Source: Amycolatopsis bartoniae (GTDB taxonomy: Bacteria; Actinomycetota; Actinomycetes; Mycobacteriales; Pseudonocardiaceae). From it: a stretch of DNA of 64,000 nucleotides. A program made the position numbers and the translations under genes. The notes under the pieces were generated by a model. It was not told where the DNA came from, ran no database searches, and was given only the letters and a program-made list of their open reading frames with translations. Location: positions 1 through 64,000 of the forward strand of contig NZ_JACHWH010000010.1 of assembly GCF_014191255.1 (NCBI RefSeq). Direction: 5' to 3'. Positions 39,822 through 54,843 of the stretch are shown here, in pieces (position 1 is the stretch's first letter; each line of letters begins with the position of its first letter).

Positions 39822-40838
39822 GTGCGGTTGAACAGCGTGAACGAGAAGGCGGAGCTGAAGGTCTCCGCCGACGTGGGCAGCTGGCTCCCGCGGCGCAGCA
39901 GCCGCGCCGCGGACTGGCGGCGCGAGGACCTGCTGGCCGCCAAGCGCGGCACCACCGTCAGCGTCGTGATCCCGGCGCGCGACGAGGAGGAGACCGTCGG
40001 CGACATCGTCCGGACCATCCGCCGGGACCTGGTCGAGGCCGTCCCGCTGGTCGACGAGGTGCTGGTGGTGGACTCGCGGTCCCAGGACGCCACCGCGCGC
40101 GTGGCAGCGGAGGCCGGGGCGGCGGTCGTCGCGCAGGACTCGGTCCTGCCGGCGCTGCCGGGTCTCGCGGGCAAGGGCGAAGCGCTGTGGAAGGGGCTCG
40201 CCTCGACCAGCGGTGACCTCGTGGTCTTCGTCGACGGCGACCTGTACGACTTCACCAGCGACTACGTCACCGGGCTGCTCGGCCCGCTGCTGACCGACGA
40301 GTCGGTGGCCTACGTCAAGGGCTTCTACCACCGGCCGCTGGTCGGCTCGGGCGGCACCGACGCCGACGGCGGCGGGCGGGTGACCGAGCTGGTCGCGCGG
40401 CCGCTGCTCAACATGTTCTGGCCGGAGCTGGCAGGGTTCGTGCAGCCGCTGGCCGGGGAGTACGCGGGCCGGCGCGAGGTGCTGGAGAGCATCCCGTTCG
40501 TCGTGAACTACGGCGTCGAGGTGGGGCACCTGATCGACATCCTGGAGTCGCGCGGGCTGGACGCGCTGGCGCAGGTGGACCTCGGCAAGCGGACCCACCG
40601 GCACCAGTCGACGCAGGCGCTCGGACGCATGTCGGGGCAGATCATGCAGACGCTGTTCGATCGCCTGGCGCACTACGGGCGCCTGGTGTCGGCCCAGCCC
40701 CCGGCGACGCTGCTGGCGCAGTTCCGCCGCGGCGAGTCGGGGCACGGCGTCGAGCGGGAGATGGTGCTGACCGACGTGTCGTGCCGGCAGCGCCCGCCGC
40801 TGGCCGAGGTGCTGGCCGACCTGCGGGAGATCGCCTAG
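39822..40838 (+). CDS. gpgS: Glucosyl-3-phosphoglycerate synthase
   Basis: 338 residues from the GTG at 39822, preceded by GGGGAAGGGG. An in-frame start at 39735 would add 29 unlike residues. GT81-family fold: VVIPARDEEETVGDIV, then VFVDGDLYDF with the metal-binding DxD, and the C-terminal GKRTHRHQS. It transfers glucose from a nucleotide sugar to 3-phosphoglycerate, the first step to glucosylglycerate and, in mycobacteria, methylglucose lipopolysaccharide. The partner phosphatase gene is not adjacent. Confidence 0.93.
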   Translation: MRLNSVNEKAELKVSADVGSWLPRRSSRAADWRREDLLAAKRGTTVSVVIPARDEEETVGDIVRTIRRDLVEAVPLVDEVLVVDSRSQDATARVAAEAGAAVVAQDSVLPALPGLAGKGEALWKGLASTSGDLVVFVDGDLYDFTSDYVTGLLGPLLTDESVAYVKGFYHRPLVGSGGTDADGGGRVTELVARPLLNMFWPELAGFVQPLAGEYAGRREVLESIPFVVNYGVEVGHLIDILESRGLDALAQVDLGKRTHRHQSTQALGRMSGQIMQTLFDRLAHYGRLVSAQPPATLLAQFRRGESGHGVEREMVLTDVSCRQRPPLAEVLADLREIA

Positions 40839-41530
40839 GCGGCGTCGTGGAAGACGAGGCCGAGGGTGTGCCGGCGGCCGGTGCGGACGGTGCTCACGCC
40901 GTGCCGCACCGGGGCCGCTGACCATCCTCGGGCCGAGCGCACGGGCCGGTCGCGGGTGGTGAAGATCAGCGCGTGGCCCTGCGGCAGCACGGTCGACGTG
41001 CCGCGGGACTGGGCGCGTGGCCGCTGTTCGACGAGCAGGAACTCGCCGCCGGTGTGGTCTGCGCCCGGTTCGTCGAGCCCGAACACCACCTGCAGCGGGA
41101 ACACCAGGTCCCCGTACAGGTCGCGGTGCAGCGCGTTCCAGTCGCCGGGGCCGTAGCGGAGCAGGATCGGCGTCGGCCGGGTCTGGCCCGCCTCGTGGCA
41201 CTGCGCCAGCCACTCGCCGAGGTCGTCCGGCCAGGGCGCCGGGCGGCGCAGCCGCGCCGCCCAGTCCCGCGCGATCGGCAGCAGGAGCGGGTAGAACGCG
41301 GCGCGCAGCGCGGCGACCGGCTCGGGCAGCGGGTAGGAGAAGTAGCGGTACTGCCCCGAGCCGAACCGGTAGCGCGCGAGGTCGATGGTCGCGCGGAACC
41401 GGTCCGGTTCGTCGTACAGCGCCGAGAGCTCGCGGCACCCGGCGGGGGAGAGCAACTGCGGGGTCAGGGCGCACCCGTGCTCGTCGAGTTCGGCGGCGAG
41501 TGCGCTCCAGCCGAGTTCGTCCGGCTTCAC
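40835..41530 (-). CDS. 2-oxoglutarate/Fe(II)-dependent oxygenase
   Basis: 231 residues from the GTG at 41530 (MKPDELGW); longer starts reach into the next gene. The facial triad appears as HRDLYGD (HxD), and VRHGVSTVRTGRRHTLGLVFH supplies the distal His and the Arg for 2-oxoglutarate. GGEFLLVEQRPRAQSR lies between. Substrate unknown; the layout is prolyl-hydroxylase-like. Convergent with gpgS, stops overlapping by 4 nt. Confidence 0.8.
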   Translation of the reverse strand: MKPDELGWSALAAELDEHGCALTPQLLSPAGCRELSALYDEPDRFRATIDLARYRFGSGQYRYFSYPLPEPVAALRAAFYPLLLPIARDWAARLRRPAPWPDDLGEWLAQCHEAGQTRPTPILLRYGPGDWNALHRDLYGDLVFPLQVVFGLDEPGADHTGGEFLLVEQRPRAQSRGTSTVLPQGHALIFTTRDRPVRSARGWSAAPVRHGVSTVRTGRRHTLGLVFHDAA

Positions 41531-42054: not shown

Positions 42055-43530
42055 GTGCGTGAAGCGGACCTGATCAGCGGCGGGCTGGTGGACGAGGGCC
42101 TGGCCCGGCGGCTCAAGGCGCTCGCCTGCACCGCGCCGCTGCACGACCTGGACGCGCGCAAGGCGAAGCTCGACTGGGCCGACGCCACCGTCTACCAGAT
42201 GGCCGAGATCGCGCTGCACACCATTGACCAGGTCACCATCGCGATGGACTTCGACACCGGCGCCGGCCACGAGGACGTCGTGCGCCGCCTGCAGCCGTTC
42301 ATCGCCGCGCAGGCGCCCGGGCGCGGCGCCGACGAACACGTCCGGGTGGCGCGCTGGGTGCTCGACAACCTGATCAACGTCGGCACCGCCGACCGCGGGT
42401 TCCGCCGCGTGTACGGCAGCGTCGACGAGAGCGGGGTGTACCGCCGCCGGGCGTTCGACTTCAAGCTGCTGGTCGAGCTGGCCGCGCCGGACGGCGAGGT
42501 GTACCTGCGGGCCAGCGACGAGGCGATCAACGTGCTCGTCGGCGCGCTGGACACCGACGTCGAGTCCGCGCAGATCGCCGCCGAGGTGAAGCTGGAGAAC
42601 CTGATCAGCCGCGGGCGGCTGGCCGACGCGAAGCTCGCCGCCGAGCAGGCCCGTTACCGCACGGTCCAGTACGGCGAGACCCTGCGTGTGAAGCTGGACG
42701 CGACGCGGCGGGACGTCCGCGCGGTCGACTGGGCCGAGGAGATGCCCGAGCTGCTCGACGCCGCGCTGTCGCACATCGAGGCCCGTTTCCGCGCGGAGAA
42801 CGCGATCCTGCGCAACATCACCCGGGCGCGGGACGAGGCCGAGGACCCCGACCACAAGCGCCGCGCCGCGGAGCTGGTCGACATCGTGAGCGACTGCATC
42901 AGCAGGCACACGCAGCTGCAGTCGCGGCTGCAGGCGGCGGGGGCGATCTTCCGCGCCGAGCAGGACCGCCAGCAGTTCTCCGGCCCGCCGCAGCGCGCGA
43001 CGATCGACCTGTTCGGGCAGCTGCTGGTGCCGACGCTGGAGCTGCCGATCGCCGACGCCGTCGCCCCGGCCGAGCGCTTCTTCTCCGCCGTGGCGGGCAC
43101 CGACGTGCCGACGGTGCCGTCGCTGCCGTCGCTGGTGTCGCTGCTGCTGCGCCCGGCGCCCGAGCGGGAGGAGCTGGTCGGCGAGGTGCCCGAGCCGGAG
43201 CTCGTCCCGTCCGAGTCGAGCGACTACTACAGTGACGAGCAGTGGCGGCGCGCCGACGAGCTGCTGGACCTGCCGGAGGTGCCGCGGCGGCTGTCCGGCC
43301 TGCTGGCCGAGGCCCGCGAGCTCGACCCGCAGCTGGCCCGCCTGGTCGCGTTGCGCGCGCTGCACTCGTACAGTCCGGAGGTCGGTGCGGCCGTCCGGCA
43401 GGGGGACGACCGCGCGTTGCTGGCGGTCGACGACGGCACGCTGCTGGAGGATCCGGAGTTCGGGGGCGCGGACCTGCTGCTGGCCACCGCGCGGATCGAG
43501 CGCCAGGACAACGAGGAGGGGGTGGCATGA
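42055..43530 (+). CDS. Kleisin-like subunit (MukF/MksF/JetA-like) of an SMC complex
   Basis: 491 residues, mostly helical. A winged-helix-like N-terminus (about 1-150) is followed by FKLLVELAAPDGEVYLRASDEAINVL and a helical middle (QIAAEVKLENLISRGRLADAKLAAEQARYR, residues about 175-205) of the style seen in MksF/JetA proteins. An acidic linker (PEPELVPSESSDYY) precedes a C-terminal domain. The call rests on gene order (kleisin, small wHTH, SMC) plus these features rather than on one diagnostic motif. Stop overlaps the next ATG (ATGA). No similarity to ScpA was seen. Confidence 0.6.
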   Translation: MREADLISGGLVDEGLARRLKALACTAPLHDLDARKAKLDWADATVYQMAEIALHTIDQVTIAMDFDTGAGHEDVVRRLQPFIAAQAPGRGADEHVRVARWVLDNLINVGTADRGFRRVYGSVDESGVYRRRAFDFKLLVELAAPDGEVYLRASDEAINVLVGALDTDVESAQIAAEVKLENLISRGRLADAKLAAEQARYRTVQYGETLRVKLDATRRDVRAVDWAEEMPELLDAALSHIEARFRAENAILRNITRARDEAEDPDHKRRAAELVDIVSDCISRHTQLQSRLQAAGAIFRAEQDRQQFSGPPQRATIDLFGQLLVPTLELPIADAVAPAERFFSAVAGTDVPTVPSLPSLVSLLLRPAPEREELVGEVPEPELVPSESSDYYSDEQWRRADELLDLPEVPRRLSGLLAEARELDPQLARLVALRALHSYSPEVGAAVRQGDDRALLAVDDGTLLEDPEFGGADLLLATARIERQDNEEGVA

Positions 43531-44315
43531 GCACGGCTGACGTGGAGTCGGCGGCGCGGCTCGTTTCGTACGGGATGCGGCCGAAGCAGCTGCCCGGGCG
43601 TGACGTCGTGTACGCCGACCTCGTGCGCCGCTACCGCGAGGACAGCGCTTTCAAGCAGCTCACCAACTCGGTCGCGGCGGGGCTGGGGCTGATGGTGTTG
43701 GACGTGAGCACGCAGGCGGGCGCGGTGCTCGCCGCCACCGACGAGTCCGTGTTCGAGATCAAGATGGACTCCTACGCGCGGCAAAGCAAGATCCGCGAAC
43801 GCCGCGACACCGAGAAGGTGCTGCACGGGCTGGTGCACCTGGCCACCGCGGCGCTCGGCTATCCGCGCCCGGACGATCTGGCCAACGACACCTACATCGG
43901 CCGCGTGAGCGTCGAGCAGGTGGACAGCGTGGTGCGCGAGGCGTGCCGCATCCTCGACGAGCGTGCGGCGAAGGCCGAGCGCAACAACGACCCGCTGTCG
44001 GACGCGCCGGAGCTCGAGCAGGCCTGGCGGGCGTACGCGCGCCGCCCGGCCGCCGCGGCGACGAAGGACGGCAGGCTCGCGTCGGACACCACGCGGGGCA
44101 TGGTGTCGCGAGCGCTGCGGTTCCTCGCCGACCAGGGGTTCCTGGTGCAGGTGAGCGGCGAGCAGGGCGGCACGTACCGCACCACGCCGCGCTACCAGGT
44201 GCAGGTGCGCGAACTGGCCGCGGACAGCGCGTTCGAGGAGCTGCTGGAACTGGGTGTCGTCGCGGTGGGGGATTCCGCAGGCACCCTCCGCCCGTCCATT
44301 TCGGACACTCTGTAG
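43527..44315 (+). CDS. MukE/MksE/JetB-like winged-helix subunit
   Basis: 262 residues. It is rich in helix with wHTH-like segments (DVVYADLVRRYREDSAFKQLTNSVAAGLG; TTRGMVSRALRFLADQGFLVQ, then a wing GGTYRTTPRYQVQVREL at about residues 195-235). Small wHTH proteins between kleisin and SMC genes are the KITE subunits of MukBEF, Mks and Wadjet systems. It is joined to the kleisin-like gene by ATGA and separated from the SMC gene by 7 nt. Confidence 0.6.
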   Translation: MSTADVESAARLVSYGMRPKQLPGRDVVYADLVRRYREDSAFKQLTNSVAAGLGLMVLDVSTQAGAVLAATDESVFEIKMDSYARQSKIRERRDTEKVLHGLVHLATAALGYPRPDDLANDTYIGRVSVEQVDSVVREACRILDERAAKAERNNDPLSDAPELEQAWRAYARRPAAAATKDGRLASDTTRGMVSRALRFLADQGFLVQVSGEQGGTYRTTPRYQVQVRELAADSAFEELLELGVVAVGDSAGTLRPSISDTL

Positions 44316-44322
44316 GGGGAGC

Positions 44323-47300
44323 ATGTACGAGCTTTCGCGAGTGCGCCTGCATTCGGTCGGCCCGGCGGGCGCGCGGTACCAGGACGTGCTGCTCGACTTC
44401 AGCGGCGTCGGGCCGCTGGTCAAGGCGCCGGCACAGGACGCGCTGTTCACCGCGGGCATCCACTCCGCCGAGCAGGGCCTGCCGCGGCGGCCGTCGCCGG
44501 CGAGCGTGTTGTTCCTGGAGAACGGCGGCGGCAAGTCGGTGCTGATCAAGCTGATCTTCTCCGTCATGCTGCCCGGCCGCCGCCAGGTCGTGGGCACCAC
44601 GAACACCCGCGTGCTGGAGAAGTTCGTCGCCGCCAAGGACGTCTCGCACGTGGTGCTGGAGTGGCAGCACACCGAGACCGGGCAGCGGATCATCACCGGC
44701 AAGGTGTCGGAGTGGCGCGGGCACGTGGTGTCCAACGACCCGGCGAACCTCGTCGACTCGTGGTTCTGCTTCCGGCCCAGCGCCACCACCGGGCTGGAGA
44801 CGCTGCCGTTCAGCGCGGACGGCAGGCTGCTCACGATGTCCGCGTTCCAGGAACGGCTCGACGAAGCGCACCGCGCCGAGCCGGAGCTGGAGCTGTCCTG
44901 GACCCGCCGCCACCACGAGTGGACCGAGCGGCTCGACCAGCTCGGTCTCGACACCGAGCTGTTCCGCTACCAGCGGGCGATGAACGCGGGCGAGGGCGAG
45001 GCGGCCGACGCGTTCGCCTTCACCTCCGACGAGGCGTTCGCCGAGTTCCTGCTCAAGGCCGTCATCCCCGAGGACGACCCGCGCGACCTCGCCGACGTGG
45101 TGCAGACGTACGCGCACAACCTCGGCCAGCGCGGCGAACTGATCGCCGAGCGGGACTTCGTCGCGGGCGCGCTCGACCTGCTCACGCCGCTGGTCGAGGA
45201 GGAGTCGCTGGCCGCGGCCTCCCGCAAGCTCGCCGTCGCGGCGCGCTCGGACGCGCAGGCGTTCGCCGGGTCCGTGATCGCGCGCCGCGAGCTGGAGTCC
45301 GAGCGGCTGTCCGGCCTGGCCGCATACGTCGACGAGACGCGGGACGCGGAGAAGCTCGCCGAGGGCGACCACCGCCGGCTGGCGGCCGTCGTGACGGAAC
45401 TGCGCCGGGTGGTGGCCGAGCTGCGGCTCGCCCGCGCCACCGAGGACAAGCAGCGCCTGGACGGCGAGCTGGCCGAGGCGCGACGGACGGCCGAGGCGTG
45501 GCGGGAGACCGGCACCGTCCTCGCGCACGTCAACGCGATGCGCAAGGCCGCCGACATCCGGGCGCTGGTGGGGGAACGGGAACAGACCGCCAAACCCGCG
45601 CTGGAGGCCAAGAACGCCGCCGCGAACGCGCTCGCCCGAGGGCTGCTCGCGCTGGCGCGCGAAGCCGGGGAACAGGCGCAGGCGGCGGAAGAACGCACCG
45701 CGGCGGCGCGCGACGAGGCCGCCGCCGCCCAGGACCAGCGCGACCGGGCCACGAGCACGGCGGCCCGGTACCGCGCCGAGGAAGCCCAGCTCACCGGCCG
45801 GGTCGAGGAGGTCAGGGCGCAGGTGCAGCAGGCCGTGCGCGACGGCCTCCTCACCGACGGCACCCAGGTCGCGGCCGCGGCGCAGGAAGCCCGCAGCCGG
45901 GGGGAGAACGCCGCGAGCGAGCTGATCTCCCGCGAGGCCGAGCTGGAGCGGGTGGCCGAGGAGCACGCCGAGGCCCAGCAGGCCCTGCACGCCGCGCAGC
46001 AGCGTGCGGCCGCCGCGCAGAGCCGCGCCGACAACGCCGCGAACGAGCTGGCGAAGGCCCACCGCCGCACGGACAGCCTCGCCGCGCACCCGCGGCTGCT
46101 GGAGCTGCTCGGCGGGGACACCGTGCAGCTGGAGACCGACACCCCCGCGCTGCTGACGCGGCTGCGTGAGGCCCGGTCCACCGCGGAGCGCGAGCAGACC
46201 GCGCTGCGCATGGCGGAGTCGGCCGACGAGCGGGCGCTCACCGCGCTCGGCGACGGGGGGCTGCTGCCCGCGCCGCCCGAGGTGCAGGCGGCACTCGACG
46301 TACTGGAGGCCGCGGGGATCACCGCGTGGTCCGGGTGGCGCTACCTGTCCACAATGGACGCCAAGGCGCGTGAACGGGTGCTGGCGGAACTGCCGCACCT
46401 CGTCGGCGGGGTGCTGGTCAACGACCCGGCGCAGCTGACGCGGGCCCGCGCCGCGCTCGCCGACGCCAAGCTCCTGCCGAGCGTCGTGGTGCCCGTGGGC
46501 ACGACGGCGGCCGTCCGGGGCGAGGGCAGCGCGCCCGGCGTCGAGTTCCTGGTACCGCCGAACCCCGCGATGTACGACGAGGACGCCGCCGACACCGAGC
46601 GGCAGGCCATCCTCGCGCGGCATGCGCGCCGCCAGAAGCAGCTGGAGGCGCTGAGCACGGCGATCGGCGATGACGCGGCGCTCGAATGGAAGCTCACCGC
46701 GTGGCGGGAGGACTATCCGCCGGGTGCGCTCGCGACCCTCGCCGAGGAAGCCGAGCACGCGGCGACCGAGTTCGCCGAGGCCCAGGAGGCCGTGACGGCG
46801 GCCGAACGCGAGCTGGCGGAGACGGCCGCCCGGCGCGCGCGGCTGCGTGAGGCGATCCCGGCGCTGCGGGCCGAGGCACGCACGGGGGAGGAGCGGTCCC
46901 GCCGGCTCGGCGAACTGGCCGAGCGGGTCGCGCGGATTCCACAGTGGACGGAGGAGGCCGGGCGGGCGCGGGAGGTCGTGGCCCGCGCCGAGGCCGAAGC
47001 GGAGCAGGCGGGCACCAAGGCGGCCCGCGCCCGCGAGGAGGCCGCCGAGGAACAACGGACGGCCGACGGGCACCGCCGGACGGTCAGCAGCGCCCGCGCC
47101 GAACTCGCCGAGGTGCCCGGCGGCGGCGGAGTGTCCGAAGAGGACCCGGCGCCGAAGGAACCCGTGGACGCGCTGCGCCGCGCCTTCGCCTCCGCGAGCG
47201 AGGCGTATGCGAAGGTCGAGGTGGGCAGCGACCTGCGGGCGGAGCTGGACCAGGCGGAGTCCGCCGAGTCGGGCGCCCGCGCGGCGCTCGAAGCGCTGGA

Positions 47301-48750
47301 CCCGGCCGTGCGCGAGCAGGCCGCCCGGTTGCTGGAAACCGCCGACGGTTCCGACGCCGCCACCCGCGCGGCGGCCCTGGCCCGCGCGGGCCGGGCGGTC
47401 GCCGCGCTGGAGGCCGAGCACAGCGAGGCGATCGGCGCGGTCGCCACCACCAAGGCCGAGCTGGACCAGCTGCCCCGGCAGAACGTGCCGCTCGAGACCC
47501 GCCCCCGCGACATCGAGCACGGCCGCGAACTGATCGACGAGGCCGGCCAGGAGGCGAGCGCCGCCGCCCGTGCGTGGGAGGAGGCGCAGGCCCGCCGGGC
47601 GGAGGCCGAGCGCGCCGCCGACCAGGCGAACGCCTCGGCCGCCGGGTTCCGGCTGCTCGCGGAGTCGATGGCCCACCTCGCGCCGGAGGGCGAGCCGGAA
47701 ACGGTGTTCGACGGGGACGTGGACGCCGCCCAGCACCGGTACCGCCGGTTCACCGCCGCGCTGACCGAGGCCGAGGCCGCGGTGGACCAGGCCGAGAAAC
47801 GGGTCCGCGCCGCCGCCGACGCGCTCGCCCAGTACGCGACCGACAAGCGGTTCGAGAGCCTGTCCAGCCCGGTGCGGCAGCAGATCATCTCGGTGCGCCG
47901 CGACAGCCTGCCCGCCAGCGCGGCCGAGTGGGCGAAGGCGCTGCGCCCGCGCCTGCGCACGCTCACCGACGACCTCGCGCAGATCGACCGCCACCGCTCC
48001 GGCATCGTGGCGCGGCTGCAGGGCATGGTCGAGGGTGCGCTGCGGATGCTGCGCTCGGCCCAGCGGCTCTCGCGGCTGCCCGAGGGGCTCGGCGACTGGT
48101 CCGGGCAGGAGTTCCTGCGCATCCGGTTCGCCGACCCGGAGGACGCCGAGCTGGTCGAGGCGCTCGGGCAGGTGGTCGACGAGGCGGCCGCCGGGAAGAC
48201 GAGCGACGGCCGGGACGTCAAACGCGACGGCATGTCGCTCGTGCTGCGCGGGGTGCGGGCCGCCGTGCCCAAGGGCTTCCGGGTGGACATGCTCAAGCCG
48301 GACTCGGTGCTGCGCACGGAACGGCAGCGGGTGTCGGAGATCCGCGACGTGTTCTCCGGCGGCCAGCAGCTGACGGCGGCGATCATCCTGTACTGCACGC
48401 TCGCCGCGCTGCGCGCCAACAACCGGGGCAAGCTGCGCAACCGCCATTCCGGGGTGCTGTTCCTGGACAACCCGATCGGCCGCGCGTCGGCGGGCTACCT
48501 GCTGGAGCTGCAGCGCGTCGTCGCCGAGGCGCTCGGCGTGCAGCTGATCTACACCACGGGCCTGTTCGACGCGGGCGCGCTGTCGGAGTTCCCGCTGATC
48601 ATCCGCCTGCGCAACGACGCCGACCTGCGGGCGGGACGCAAGTACCTGTCGGTCGACGCGACGATCCGCAACCACCTCGACGAGCTCGCCGAACCGGACG
48701 GCACGTCCCACCTGTCGGCGACACGCCTGTTCAGCAGGACCGGCGACTAG
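44323..48750 (+). CDS. SMC-like ATPase (MukB/MksB/JetC-like), 1475 residues
   Basis: Begins with an ABC head: Walker A LENGGGKS (N67-S72). Long Ala/Glu/Arg-rich coiled coils fill about 210-590 and 770-1180. Between them is a compact globular region (about 592-765) that could be a hinge. The head resumes with signature FSGGQQLTAA (S1345) and Walker B VLFLDNPIGRAS, where D1382 is followed by Asn, not the catalytic Glu of SMC proteins. A SD AGGGGGA lies 2 nt before the ATG. It probably dimerises and works with the two upstream proteins on DNA. Much longer than chromosomal SMC (about 1200). Confidence 0.75.
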   Translation: MYELSRVRLHSVGPAGARYQDVLLDFSGVGPLVKAPAQDALFTAGIHSAEQGLPRRPSPASVLFLENGGGKSVLIKLIFSVMLPGRRQVVGTTNTRVLEKFVAAKDVSHVVLEWQHTETGQRIITGKVSEWRGHVVSNDPANLVDSWFCFRPSATTGLETLPFSADGRLLTMSAFQERLDEAHRAEPELELSWTRRHHEWTERLDQLGLDTELFRYQRAMNAGEGEAADAFAFTSDEAFAEFLLKAVIPEDDPRDLADVVQTYAHNLGQRGELIAERDFVAGALDLLTPLVEEESLAAASRKLAVAARSDAQAFAGSVIARRELESERLSGLAAYVDETRDAEKLAEGDHRRLAAVVTELRRVVAELRLARATEDKQRLDGELAEARRTAEAWRETGTVLAHVNAMRKAADIRALVGEREQTAKPALEAKNAAANALARGLLALAREAGEQAQAAEERTAAARDEAAAAQDQRDRATSTAARYRAEEAQLTGRVEEVRAQVQQAVRDGLLTDGTQVAAAAQEARSRGENAASELISREAELERVAEEHAEAQQALHAAQQRAAAAQSRADNAANELAKAHRRTDSLAAHPRLLELLGGDTVQLETDTPALLTRLREARSTAEREQTALRMAESADERALTALGDGGLLPAPPEVQAALDVLEAAGITAWSGWRYLSTMDAKARERVLAELPHLVGGVLVNDPAQLTRARAALADAKLLPSVVVPVGTTAAVRGEGSAPGVEFLVPPNPAMYDEDAADTERQAILARHARRQKQLEALSTAIGDDAALEWKLTAWREDYPPGALATLAEEAEHAATEFAEAQEAVTAAERELAETAARRARLREAIPALRAEARTGEERSRRLGELAERVARIPQWTEEAGRAREVVARAEAEAEQAGTKAARAREEAAEEQRTADGHRRTVSSARAELAEVPGGGGVSEEDPAPKEPVDALRRAFASASEAYAKVEVGSDLRAELDQAESAESGARAALEALDPAVREQAARLLETADGSDAATRAAALARAGRAVAALEAEHSEAIGAVATTKAELDQLPRQNVPLETRPRDIEHGRELIDEAGQEASAAARAWEEAQARRAEAERAADQANASAAGFRLLAESMAHLAPEGEPETVFDGDVDAAQHRYRRFTAALTEAEAAVDQAEKRVRAAADALAQYATDKRFESLSSPVRQQIISVRRDSLPASAAEWAKALRPRLRTLTDDLAQIDRHRSGIVARLQGMVEGALRMLRSAQRLSRLPEGLGDWSGQEFLRIRFADPEDAELVEALGQVVDEAAAGKTSDGRDVKRDGMSLVLRGVRAAVPKGFRVDMLKPDSVLRTERQRVSEIRDVFSGGQQLTAAIILYCTLAALRANNRGKLRNRHSGVLFLDNPIGRASAGYLLELQRVVAEALGVQLIYTTGLFDAGALSEFPLIIRLRNDADLRAGRKYLSVDATIRNHLDELAEPDGTSHLSATRLFSRTGD

Positions 48751-49105
48751 CACCGCGGTCGCGCTCCGTGCGGAAGGCGCGCCGGGATCTGCTCGACCCG
48801 GTGCCCCTCACATGTGCCCCAAGGAGTGACTCCGGCGGTAACGGGCGAACTTTGCCGTACTCCCACCGCAGTGGGTTACTTTCGTCCCTCCACAGGGGAC
48901 GGACGCCGCGACGGTGCGTGATCATCGGCGGAATCGCCGGCGGAACTACACCCGCACGGTACTCATCCGGAAAGGGGGCCTGTGCAATTCGTGAATGCGG
49001 CTCGGATCCGCCGCGTTAACTCCTTCGGATGGACGCCGCGTGAATTTCGGCTCGATTGGGTAAGGAATTGCAGGCAGACAGCCCCACTCTTTCGAGGAGC
49101 CCACA
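48751..49105. other. 355-nt intergenic region after the SMC operon
   Basis: Less GC-rich than its surroundings, with no credible ORF. It holds a weak CCGGG/CCCGG stem (48782-48801) that may end the operon and a perfect small dyad GGAGT-G-ACTCC (48823-48833), possibly an operator. The right edge carries GAGGAG (49094-49099), the ribosome-binding site of the next gene. No RNA family recognised. Confidence 0.5.
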
Positions 49106-53676: not shown

Positions 53677-54843
53677 GTGAGCACGCGGATGACCACCGGG
53701 CAGCGCCGCGCCCGGCTGATGACCCGGCACCTGCTGGCCGCCCCGGCCACGGACGTGACCGAGGTGGCGGAAAGCCTGGTGGCGCTGCACGCCACCGACC
53801 CGGCGACGGTGCACCTGTCGGTGGCGGCGCGGCTGCGCAAGCCGGTGACGGCCGAGCACGCGCTGTACGAGGAACGCACGCTGGTGCGGATGCTGGGCAT
53901 GCGGCGCACGGTGTTCGTCGTTCCCGCCGCCCTGGCGCCGGTCGTGCAGGCGGCGTGCGCCGACGACATCGCCCGCAAGCAGCGGAAGCTGCTGCTGCAG
54001 CACCTGGCCACGGCGGAGCTGGACACCGACCTGGACCGCTGGCTCGCCGAGGTCGAGGAGGGCGCTTTCGCGGCACTGTGCAAGCGGGGTGCCGCCCACG
54101 CGCAGCAGCTCGCGGACGACGAACCCAGGCTGCGCACGCAAATCCTGATGTCGCAAGGAAAACCGTACGAAGCGCGGACCTACGTCACCAACCGGGTGCT
54201 GTTCCTGCTCGCCGCGCAGGGGCGCATCGTGCGCGGCCGCCCGCGGGGCTCGTGGCTGTCCACCCAGTACTCCTGGGTGCCCGCCGACTCGTGGCTGCCG
54301 GGCGGGATTCCGGCACTGCCCGCGGAGGAGGCCCGCGTCGAACTGGCCCGGCGGTGGCTGCGCGCGTTCGGCCCGGCCACGGTCGAGGACCTCAAGTGGT
54401 GGACCGGCTGGACGGCGACCCAGGTGAAGAAGGCGCTCACGGTGCTCGCTCCCGCCGAGGTGGACATCGACGGCAGGCCCGCCATCGTGCTGCCCGGCGA
54501 CGTGGAACCGGTGACGGCGCCCGAGCCTGCCGCCGCGCTGCTGCCCGCGCTCGACCCGACGCCGATGGGCTGGCTGGGGCGCGACTGGTACCTCGGCGCG
54601 CACCAGGCGGAGTTGTTCGACCGCACCGGAAACATCGGCCCCACCGTGTGGTGGGACGGGCGCATCGTCGGTGGCTGGGCGCAGCGCCCGGACGGCGAGA
54701 TCGCCTACCGCTTGCTGGAGGACGCCGGCGCCGACGCGGAGGCGGCGATCGCGCGGAAGGCGGACCAGTTGCGCGAGTGGCTCGGTGCCGTCCGGATCGC
54801 CCCGAAATTCCGCACTCCGGTGGAGCAGGCGCTGCTTACTTGA
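53677..54843 (+). CDS. Winged-helix DNA-binding (HTH_42/YcaQ-like) protein
   Basis: 388 residues, the actinobacterial form of the winged-helix DNA-binding domain family that includes crosslink glycosylases such as YcaQ/AlkX. Blocks ESLVALHATDPATVHLSV, FVVPAALAPVV, GWLGRDWYLG and GGWAQRPDGEIAYRLL are family-like. Whether it unhooks DNA crosslinks is unknown. Divergent from lysE with 71 nt between starts. Confidence 0.8.
   Translation: MSTRMTTGQRRARLMTRHLLAAPATDVTEVAESLVALHATDPATVHLSVAARLRKPVTAEHALYEERTLVRMLGMRRTVFVVPAALAPVVQAACADDIARKQRKLLLQHLATAELDTDLDRWLAEVEEGAFAALCKRGAAHAQQLADDEPRLRTQILMSQGKPYEARTYVTNRVLFLLAAQGRIVRGRPRGSWLSTQYSWVPADSWLPGGIPALPAEEARVELARRWLRAFGPATVEDLKWWTGWTATQVKKALTVLAPAEVDIDGRPAIVLPGDVEPVTAPEPAAALLPALDPTPMGWLGRDWYLGAHQAELFDRTGNIGPTVWWDGRIVGGWAQRPDGEIAYRLLEDAGADAEAAIARKADQLREWLGAVRIAPKFRTPVEQALLT

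What the first reader, a model, noticed from the sequence alone, without database searches (positions are those of the whole stretch)
42055..48750. Three-gene SMC complex resembling Wadjet/MukBEF but with no JetD/MksG nuclease gene nearby
Gene order (kleisin-like, small winged-helix, giant SMC-like ATPase), ATGA coupling and a 7-nt gap show one complex. Wadjet (JetABCD) and MksBEFG carry a fourth TOPRIM nuclease gene. None is found on either strand in the roughly 13 kb on either side that this window covers. It sits in a variable stretch between gpgS and gap. It may be a nuclease-free defence or plasmid-control module, or a second condensin for a large linear or sporulating chromosome.
Basis: partly seen in the sequence, partly recalled or inferred. 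Interest (0 to 1): 0.85.

Follow-up and report, generated by a model that had tools for sequence, protein, structure and literature searches.

The report
Wadjet-type SMC complex without its nuclease
This Amycolatopsis-like bacterium carries the DNA-motor half (JetABC) of an anti-plasmid defence machine but no copy of the DNA-cutting half, and a cutter-free version also appears to be a standard chromosomal feature of its own genus group and, by separate descent, of Streptomyces, so it may have been turned to a housekeeping job such as shaping the chromosome.

Summary
The trio is real: 42055-43530, 43527-44315, 44323-48750, all +. Genes 1 and 3 are JetA and JetC of Wadjet type III (PADLOC 707 and 1964 bits); gene 2 is JetB by position and by relatives, weakly by its own profile. 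The nuclease JetD was found nowhere in the 7.76-Mb assembly, though the same searches find it in relatives. JetD-less trios do not form one clade (AU p 4e-5), so JetD was lost, or lost and regained, more than once. Of 64 relatives with the trio at the same locus, 62 lack JetD; in A. rifamycinica JetD was inserted, leaving a scar of the old jetC end behind it. JetA is in 147 of 150 genomes of a group I take to be Streptomyces; strong JetD in 11, all with two or more JetA matches. At family level JetA is patchy, 81 of 249. Selection looks purifying and ATPase motifs are kept. I read it as a nuclease-free, chromosomally fixed Wadjet-III derivative, most likely a second condensin-like motor.

The parts
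42055..43530 (+). jetA (type III), kleisin-type subunit, 491 aa
   Evidence: PADLOC JetA3 PDLC00567, 706.6 bits, E 5e-213, residues 10-488; no Pfam family at E up to 1
43527..44315 (+). jetB (type III), KITE-type subunit, 262 aa, ATGA overlap with jetA
   Evidence: own match to JetB3 PDLC00573 weak (E 0.007); in alignment A3 15 of 52 members match PDLC00573, 7 PDLC00577 and 7 PDLC00571, best 2e-7; lies between JetA and JetC in the relatives printed
44323..48750 (+). jetC (type III), SMC-like coiled-coil ATPase, 1475 aa
   Evidence: PADLOC JetC3 PDLC00588, 1963.7 bits, residues 1-1473 to profile 1-1472/1484
44524..44538 (+). JetC Walker A GGGKS (residues 68-72)
   Evidence: GGGKS in 88 of 88 JetD-less JetC rows and 19 of 27 JetD-bearing rows (position)
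48355..48366 (+). JetC ABC signature SGGQ (residues 1345-1348)
   Evidence: SGGQ in 85 and SGGE in 3 of 88 JetD-less rows; 18 and 9 of 27 JetD-bearing rows
48460..48474 (+). JetC Walker B FLDNP (residues 1380-1384); Asn, not Glu, follows the Asp
   Evidence: D then N in 115 of 115 JetC rows, with or without JetD
48751..49105 (.). empty JetD slot: no JetD gene or remnant behind jetC
   Evidence: six-frame hmmsearch --max with a JetD3 profile, E up to 5, lists nothing in the window; JetD-bearing relatives have JetD here

Best explanation
The trio is a JetABC complex of Wadjet type III that has lost the JetD nuclease and become a fixed chromosomal gene set. It most likely still works as an ATP-driven SMC motor (JetC dimers closed by the kleisin JetA, with JetB as KITE partner) that loads on DNA and moves along or extrudes it. 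Without JetD, meeting a small circle cannot end in a cut by that nuclease, so the motor most likely acts on the chromosome as a second, condensin-like organiser beside the canonical SMC. Shown here: family identity, JetD not found in the assembly, more than one change between the JetD-bearing and JetD-less state, a regular presence in two genus groups, low dN/dS, kept ATPase motifs. Inferred: motor activity and chromosomal role.
For: JetA3/JetC3 profiles. JetD not found in the assembly (all 103 candidates scored), with positives elsewhere. In 249 genomes of the family, 87 JetA copies in 81 genomes: 26 with JetD within 8 kb downstream, 61 without; 55 of those 61 genomes have no JetD3 match at E 0.001, the other 6 have it beside a second JetA copy. 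Own genus group g1: 16 genomes with an unlinked JetA, and no g1 genome among the non-matches shown (one search shows 20 of 168, nearest kin first). Streptomyces-like group: JetA in 147 of 150; 11 strong JetD, all in genomes with two or more JetA matches, 7 of the 11 seen beside the second copy, 4 not shown. Same locus in 64 named relatives by at least one of three flank markers. dN/dS 0.05-0.14 for window against L002 and L004. Canonical SMC present separately, 978 bits. All 5 plasmid records with a JetA match also hold JetD about 6 kb downstream.
Against: No experiment. JetA3 is missing from 168 of 249 genomes of the family (present in 22 of 46 genera) and from 333 of 394 of the class (8 of 138 genera have it), so it is not a general actinomycete housekeeping gene. 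The genome counts rest on JetA alone; JetB and JetC were read only in fetched loci. One JetD-less genome has only JetA fragments (G528) and another a split JetA (G555). The residue after the Walker-B Asp is Asn in 115 of 115 JetC rows, so strong ATP hydrolysis is not assured. No column conserved in 85% of 26 JetD-bearing rows fell below 30% retention in the Amycolatopsis-type rows, and 0 of 443 columns conserved in the 13 nearer JetD-bearing rows did so in both JetD-less groups: no sequence sign of a new job, and the complex may still be JetD-competent. A. rifamycinica gained JetD in place, which suggests that defence can be restored. An unrelated unlinked nuclease was not searched for.
Confidence: 0.5

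Rival explanations
1. Nuclease-free defence: JetABC still recognises small circular DNA and holds, compacts or silences it instead of cutting it, somewhat like Smc5/6 on extrachromosomal DNA.
For: No column conserved in JetD-bearing complexes is broadly lost in the Amycolatopsis-type set. Patchy at family and class level, as defence genes are. [quoted passage not shown] silencing as its mode is recalled.
Against: JetA is near-universal inside two genus groups, while full JetABCD occurs there as a sporadic second copy.
Confidence: 0.2
2. JetABC works with another nuclease or effector encoded elsewhere in the genome.
For: Conserved columns are kept; A. rifamycinica shows that a JetD gene can join such a trio.
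Against: No JetD_C or JetD3 hit anywhere in the assembly; the loci printed show no neighbour shared between Amycolatopsis-type and Streptomyces trios. Other nuclease families were not searched for.
Confidence: 0.15
3. Decaying remnant of a Wadjet operon without function.
For: JetD is gone; an orphan JetD with only a jetC end upstream shows that such operons do decay (L143); G528 has only JetA fragments.
Against: All dN/dS ratios below 0.25 in 13 pairs; Walker A GGGKS and signature SGGQ/E in 88 of 88 JetD-less rows; JetA in 147 of 150 and in 16 genomes of the own genus group.
Confidence: 0.03
4. A dormant sensor re-armed from time to time: JetABC is held by weak unrelated benefits and now and then gains a JetD horizontally.
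For: In-place JetD insertion in A. rifamycinica with a jetC-end scar; JetD of L034, L071, L137, L184 and L154 group together in the JetD tree (no support values printed).
Against: Shown once among 64 syntenic relatives (the JetD of L034 may be old or new); selection cannot keep a gene for future use.
Confidence: 0.1

Closest known systems
Wadjet type III (JetABCD)
   Same: JetA3, JetB3, JetC3 family, order A-B-C, operon coupling; JetD3 is the next gene in JetD-bearing relatives
   Different: no JetD nuclease found in the operon or assembly; regular at one chromosomal locus in its relatives rather than sporadic
MukBEF / MksBEF condensins
   Same: kleisin + KITE + giant SMC without a nuclease would have the same architecture (inferred); a review suggests that Wadjet may have given rise to MukBEF and MksBEF (PMC10586767, section on architecture and evolution)
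   Different: no Pfam family at E up to 1 for any of the three proteins; this would be an independent origin from type III
MksBEFG / Wadjet type I of Corynebacterium glutamicum
   Same: actinobacterial SMC-like complex; the kleisin MksF links it to the nuclease there (PMC10123090, passages)
   Different: has MksG; the window's assembly has no JetD_C
Canonical SMC-ScpAB
   Same: SMC-type motor expected
   Different: separate SMC gene at C2:655969-659529 with 978 bits; JetC gives only 21.9 bits against a cut-off of 567

Membership tests
Wadjet type III | JetA type III subunit | tested here: met
   PDLC00567, 706.6 bits
Wadjet type III | JetB type III subunit | tested here: met
   weak on its own (E 0.007); relatives match three JetB3 models, best 2e-7, the commonest in 15 of 52; position conserved in the loci printed
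Wadjet type III | JetC type III SMC ATPase | tested here: met
   PDLC00588, 1963.7 bits over 1473 residues
Wadjet type III | JetD TOPRIM nuclease in the operon | tested here: not met
   no JetD_C and no JetD3 in the whole assembly; no remnant in the window
Wadjet type III | restricts circular plasmids by cleavage | not testable with these tools
   needs a plasmid assay; cleavage is not expected without JetD
MukBEF/MksBEF | sequence match to known MukB/E/F families | tested here: not met
   0 Pfam families and no MukBEF model in NCBIfam at E up to 1
MukBEF/MksBEF | kleisin and KITE folds of subunits 1 and 2 | not tested
SMC-ScpAB | SMC_prok_B equivalog | tested here: not met
   21.9 bits against a cut-off of 567
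second chromosomal condensin (function) | alters chromosome conformation or segregation | not testable with these tools
   needs Hi-C or microscopy of a deletion strain

The most novel reading that the evidence does not exclude
A defence machine was turned into a housekeeping chromosome organiser more than once: JetABC of Wadjet III lost JetD in the Streptomyces lineage and in the Amycolatopsis lineage and became a second, regular condensin of these antibiotic producers, a living replay of how MukBEF/MksBEF may have arisen, with a re-arming caught in A. rifamycinica.
Probability: 0.42. Interest if true: 0.88.

Novelty: new variant of a known kind. Interest (0 to 1): 0.7.

Why it matters
The JetA of a Wadjet motor is kept in 147 of 150 sampled genomes of a group that I take to be Streptomyces and, without a linked JetD, in 16 genomes of the window's own genus group; where I read the locus, JetB and JetC stand beside it. 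The passages that I read of two Streptomyces chromosome papers (found with MukB, SMC-like, Mks and similar terms) treat SMC as the condensin and mention no such complex (PMC13121528, PMC8410768). A 2023 review suggests that chromosomal MukBEF/MksBEF came from Wadjet (PMC10586767, one section); here are separate natural cases that look like the proposed step, in bacteria that can be manipulated genetically. Surveys that name these genes Wadjet may also overstate plasmid defence in Actinobacteria: one reports Wadjet in 42% of them (PMC10482375); I do not know whether it counted the trio.

Tried and rejected
Rejected: JetD merely distant or on another contig; JetD degraded in place (no remnant); one clade for all JetD-less trios (AU p 3.8e-5 on 30 chosen rows, simple model, quick tree, without L210 and L071); JetD of A. 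rifamycinica as simple retention (scar); decay; phage origin (no match for JetA among phage records).

Led nowhere: PDB sequence searches for JetA, JetB and JetC found no plausible relative; the JetD3 profile has JetD (7til, E 0.06) and MksG (8b7f, E 0.24) as its two best hits. The search for columns lost with JetD found none lost in both groups; five were changed in the Streptomyces-type rows only. Literature: 0 papers for six phrasings of JetD-less Wadjet, 1 irrelevant paper for Wadjet+Amycolatopsis; the listings of the other eight searches name nothing of the kind in title or start of abstract, showing 20 of 47. The library lacks most subscription papers and all preprints. Two wanted papers were not held.

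Limits: the name Streptomyces for group g28 is inferred from tree and neighbours of two of its genomes. Genome counts rest on JetA and JetD profiles, not on whole trios, and the JetD search of relatives scored at most the best 8 (family) or 14 (g28) first-look candidates per genome. Gene calls in relatives are from my own caller. Tree: 115 of 124 loci put in; seven duplicates and the truncated L069 were dropped beforehand, L145 for a short JetC; five of the 115 (L204, L205, L208, L209, L211) still repeat named loci, judged by equal contig length, so '88 JetD-less rows' hold 83 distinct and '70 Amycolatopsis-type rows' 66. Roots are by midpoint or chosen outgroup. Parsimony cannot separate loss from regain. 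dN/dS is Nei-Gojobori on 13 hand-picked pairs.
Full report
Observation. Three genes on the + strand at 42055-43530, 43527-44315 and 44323-48750; the first two overlap by ATGA, the second and third are 7 nt apart. No tRNA lies in the window. G+C over the trio is 0.72-0.77; the 2-kb step 46001-48000 is the window's richest (0.773) with the strongest A skew (0.26). The assembly is 7,757,008 bases in 23 contigs, 99.98% complete. The closest named relatives are Amycolatopsis species (A. sacchari, 91% identity in JetC).

Identity. Pfam has no model for any of the three at E up to 1. PADLOC gives JetA3 (706.6 bits), a weak JetB3 (E 0.005-0.007) and JetC3 (1963.7 bits, full length). In a 52-member JetB alignment 15 members match one JetB3 model, 7 a second and 7 a third, best E 2e-7; LmuC matches 2 and DpdE 1. 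So these are Wadjet type III subunits.

JetD is not there. Pfam JetD_C finds nothing in the assembly but rings in 39 of 394 genomes of the class and in C. glutamicum. I built a JetD3 alignment of 10 relatives; all 10 match PADLOC JetD3 PDLC00594 (best 4e-123) and Pfam JetD_C (best 3.6e-7), and E200, D250 and D252 are invariant (that these are the TOPRIM metal residues is recalled). It finds nothing in the assembly at E up to 10, all 103 candidates scored, but hits 33 of 249 genomes of the family, some of them sources of the profile. No remnant was found in the window.

Conservation and locus. One search gave 75 named loci. Eleven are set aside for synteny: Sciscionella L045 and L061, Actinoplanes L052, MAGs L054 and L068, truncated L069, Crossiella L070, Streptomyces L072-L075. 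In each of the other 64 the trio lies by at least one of PNPOx upstream, whiA/gpgS upstream, gap downstream. JetD is present in 2 of these 64: Tamaricihabitans (L034) and A. rifamycinica (L071); over all 75 it is in 6 (L034, L052, L054, L068, L070, L071). Loci reach up to 10 kb on each side, some less. The genes between gpgS and gap vary; the trio stays.

Phyletic counts. Family sample, 249 genomes: JetA3 in 81, in 22 of 46 genera; 168 lack it. After merging two split hits there are 87 copies: 26 with JetD within 8 kb downstream on the same strand, 61 without. Of the 61 genomes with an unlinked copy, 55 have no JetD3 match; 6 (G486, G498, G548, G555, G589, G605) have one beside a second JetA copy. 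The other way round, of the 33 genomes with JetD3, 26 have it linked to JetA, two have a strong JetD without a linked JetA (G503, G547), and five have only weak hits. Own genus group g1: 16 genomes with an unlinked copy, one with a linked second copy as well; group g153: 16 genomes with an unlinked copy, three also with a linked one; the number sampled in g153 is not shown. Group g28, which I take to be Streptomyces, 150 genomes: JetA3 in 147, JetD3 in 14, of which 11 strong (E at most 9e-50) and 3 weak. All 11 are among the 13 genomes with two or more JetA matches; none of the 134 genomes with one match has a strong JetD. For 7 of the 11 the listed coordinates show JetD beside the extra JetA; for 4 that place fell off the capped list. 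Class sample: JetA3 in 61 of 394, in 8 of 138 genera, so outside a few groups it is rare. Plasmids: 5 records hold a JetA match (56% identity at best, the others 28-34%), and all 5 also hold a JetD match about 6 kb downstream (one region read with its annotation). Phages: none.

History. A tree of JetA+B+C from 115 loci, rooted at the midpoint, has JetD-bearing operons on most of its deep branches and JetD-less ones in several places; I take JetD as ancestral on that ground. A 46-row maximum-likelihood tree needs 6 changes of the JetD state (5 without L071), 5 forced by well-supported branches (it warns of long branches and was a short search). A 30-row test with a simpler model rejects one clade for all JetD-less rows (AU p 3.8e-5). 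So JetD was lost at least twice, or lost and regained. A. rifamycinica shows a gain: its JetABC stretch is 90-94% identical in DNA to four JetD-less sisters, JetD sits at the end of jetC, and behind JetD lies a short sequence that, read by eye, is the end of jetC in 9 of 9 sisters printed. JetD was thus inserted into a JetD-less operon, replacing the jetC end. In L143 an orphan JetD has only a piece of jetC upstream, a decayed four-gene operon.

Selection and motifs. dN/dS for window against A. sacchari: 0.033/0.307 for A, 0.017/0.349 for B, 0.049/0.46 for C; over all 13 pairs (three of them JetD-bearing) every ratio is below 0.25, the highest being jetC of L190-L191 (0.048/0.194) and of L139-L140 (0.126/0.571). 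Walker A is GGGKS in 88 of 88 JetD-less rows (19 of 27 JetD-bearing ones, one of which reads GGGKG); the signature is SGGQ in 85 and SGGE in 3. The residue after the Walker-B Asp is Asn in 115 of 115. Of columns conserved in at least 85% of 26 JetD-bearing rows, none fell below 30% retention in the 70 Amycolatopsis-type rows and five did in the 7 Streptomyces-type rows; of 443 columns conserved in the 13 nearer JetD-bearing rows none fell below it in both.

Mechanism. By analogy with type I, JetABC is a loop-extruding motor that triggers JetD when a small circle is fully reeled in (total extrusion model, PMC10586767, passages). Without JetD the last step is missing. The motor is kept, regular in its groups, and separate from canonical SMC. 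The most economical reading is that it acts on the chromosome. I put this at 0.5, plasmid silencing at 0.2, an unlinked effector at 0.15. The nuclease-free state itself I hold at about 0.93. The family-level patchiness is the main fact against a housekeeping role; it was known when these odds were set, and they are unchanged.

Literature. I found no paper on JetD-less Wadjet in ten searches of open-licence PMC papers, of most of which I saw listings only. The Actinobacteria survey PMC10482375 (passages and one section) reports Wadjet as enriched in Actinobacteria and, in Streptomyces, towards chromosome ends; the word JetD does not occur in its main text. In 28 single-contig assemblies picked by hand the JetA lies 4-20% of chromosome length from an end in 25 and further in for 3 (lengths rounded).

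Noticed in passing
window 48460-48474 and 115 JetC rows: Asn instead of Glu after the Walker-B Asp in every type III JetC aligned, with or without JetD; ATP hydrolysis by type III Wadjet may differ from type I.
   Followed up: partly
L071 14448-15494 (A. rifamycinica): JetD inserted into a JetD-less jetABC operon, with the old end of jetC left behind it: re-arming of a disarmed Wadjet.
   Followed up: yes
L143 6094-7427: Orphan JetD with only a C-terminal piece of jetC upstream: a decayed four-gene Wadjet III operon.
   Followed up: partly
window 40835-41530 (-) and 53689-54843 (+): The trio is flanked at a distance by two DNA-repair-type genes, Oxygenase-NA (PF09859) and an AlkZ-like glycosylase (PF06224); the AlkZ-like cluster has members in 55 loci, the oxygenase cluster in 11.
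   Followed up: no
L139, L140, L072 jetC near residues 166 and 599: Streptomyces-type JetC has an extra stretch of 24-47 residues near residue 599 and a 14-residue insert near residue 166.
   Followed up: no
L072 13470-17391, L139 666-4348: The Streptomyces trio lies beside what reads like a conservon (sensor kinase, roadblock, DUF742, small GTPase); names recalled, not profile-tested.
   Followed up: no
L054 10001-15487: MAG locus in which the jetC ORF changes frame near its 3' end and runs on into jetD; probably an assembly error.
   Followed up: no
L226 (linear plasmid of Rhodococcus pseudokoreensis, NZ_CP070616.1): JetA-like, two further genes and JetD in a row on a linear plasmid; only JetD is annotated as Wadjet, the other three as hypothetical.
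   Followed up: partly
L210, L214, L215, L216: Further JetD-less trios inside otherwise JetD-bearing branches, suggesting repeated recent JetD loss.
   Followed up: partly
genomes G503 (C2:1146494) and G547 (C7:97561): Strong JetD3 matches without a JetA3 match in the genome; whether the partner JetABC is diverged or missing was not checked.
   Followed up: no
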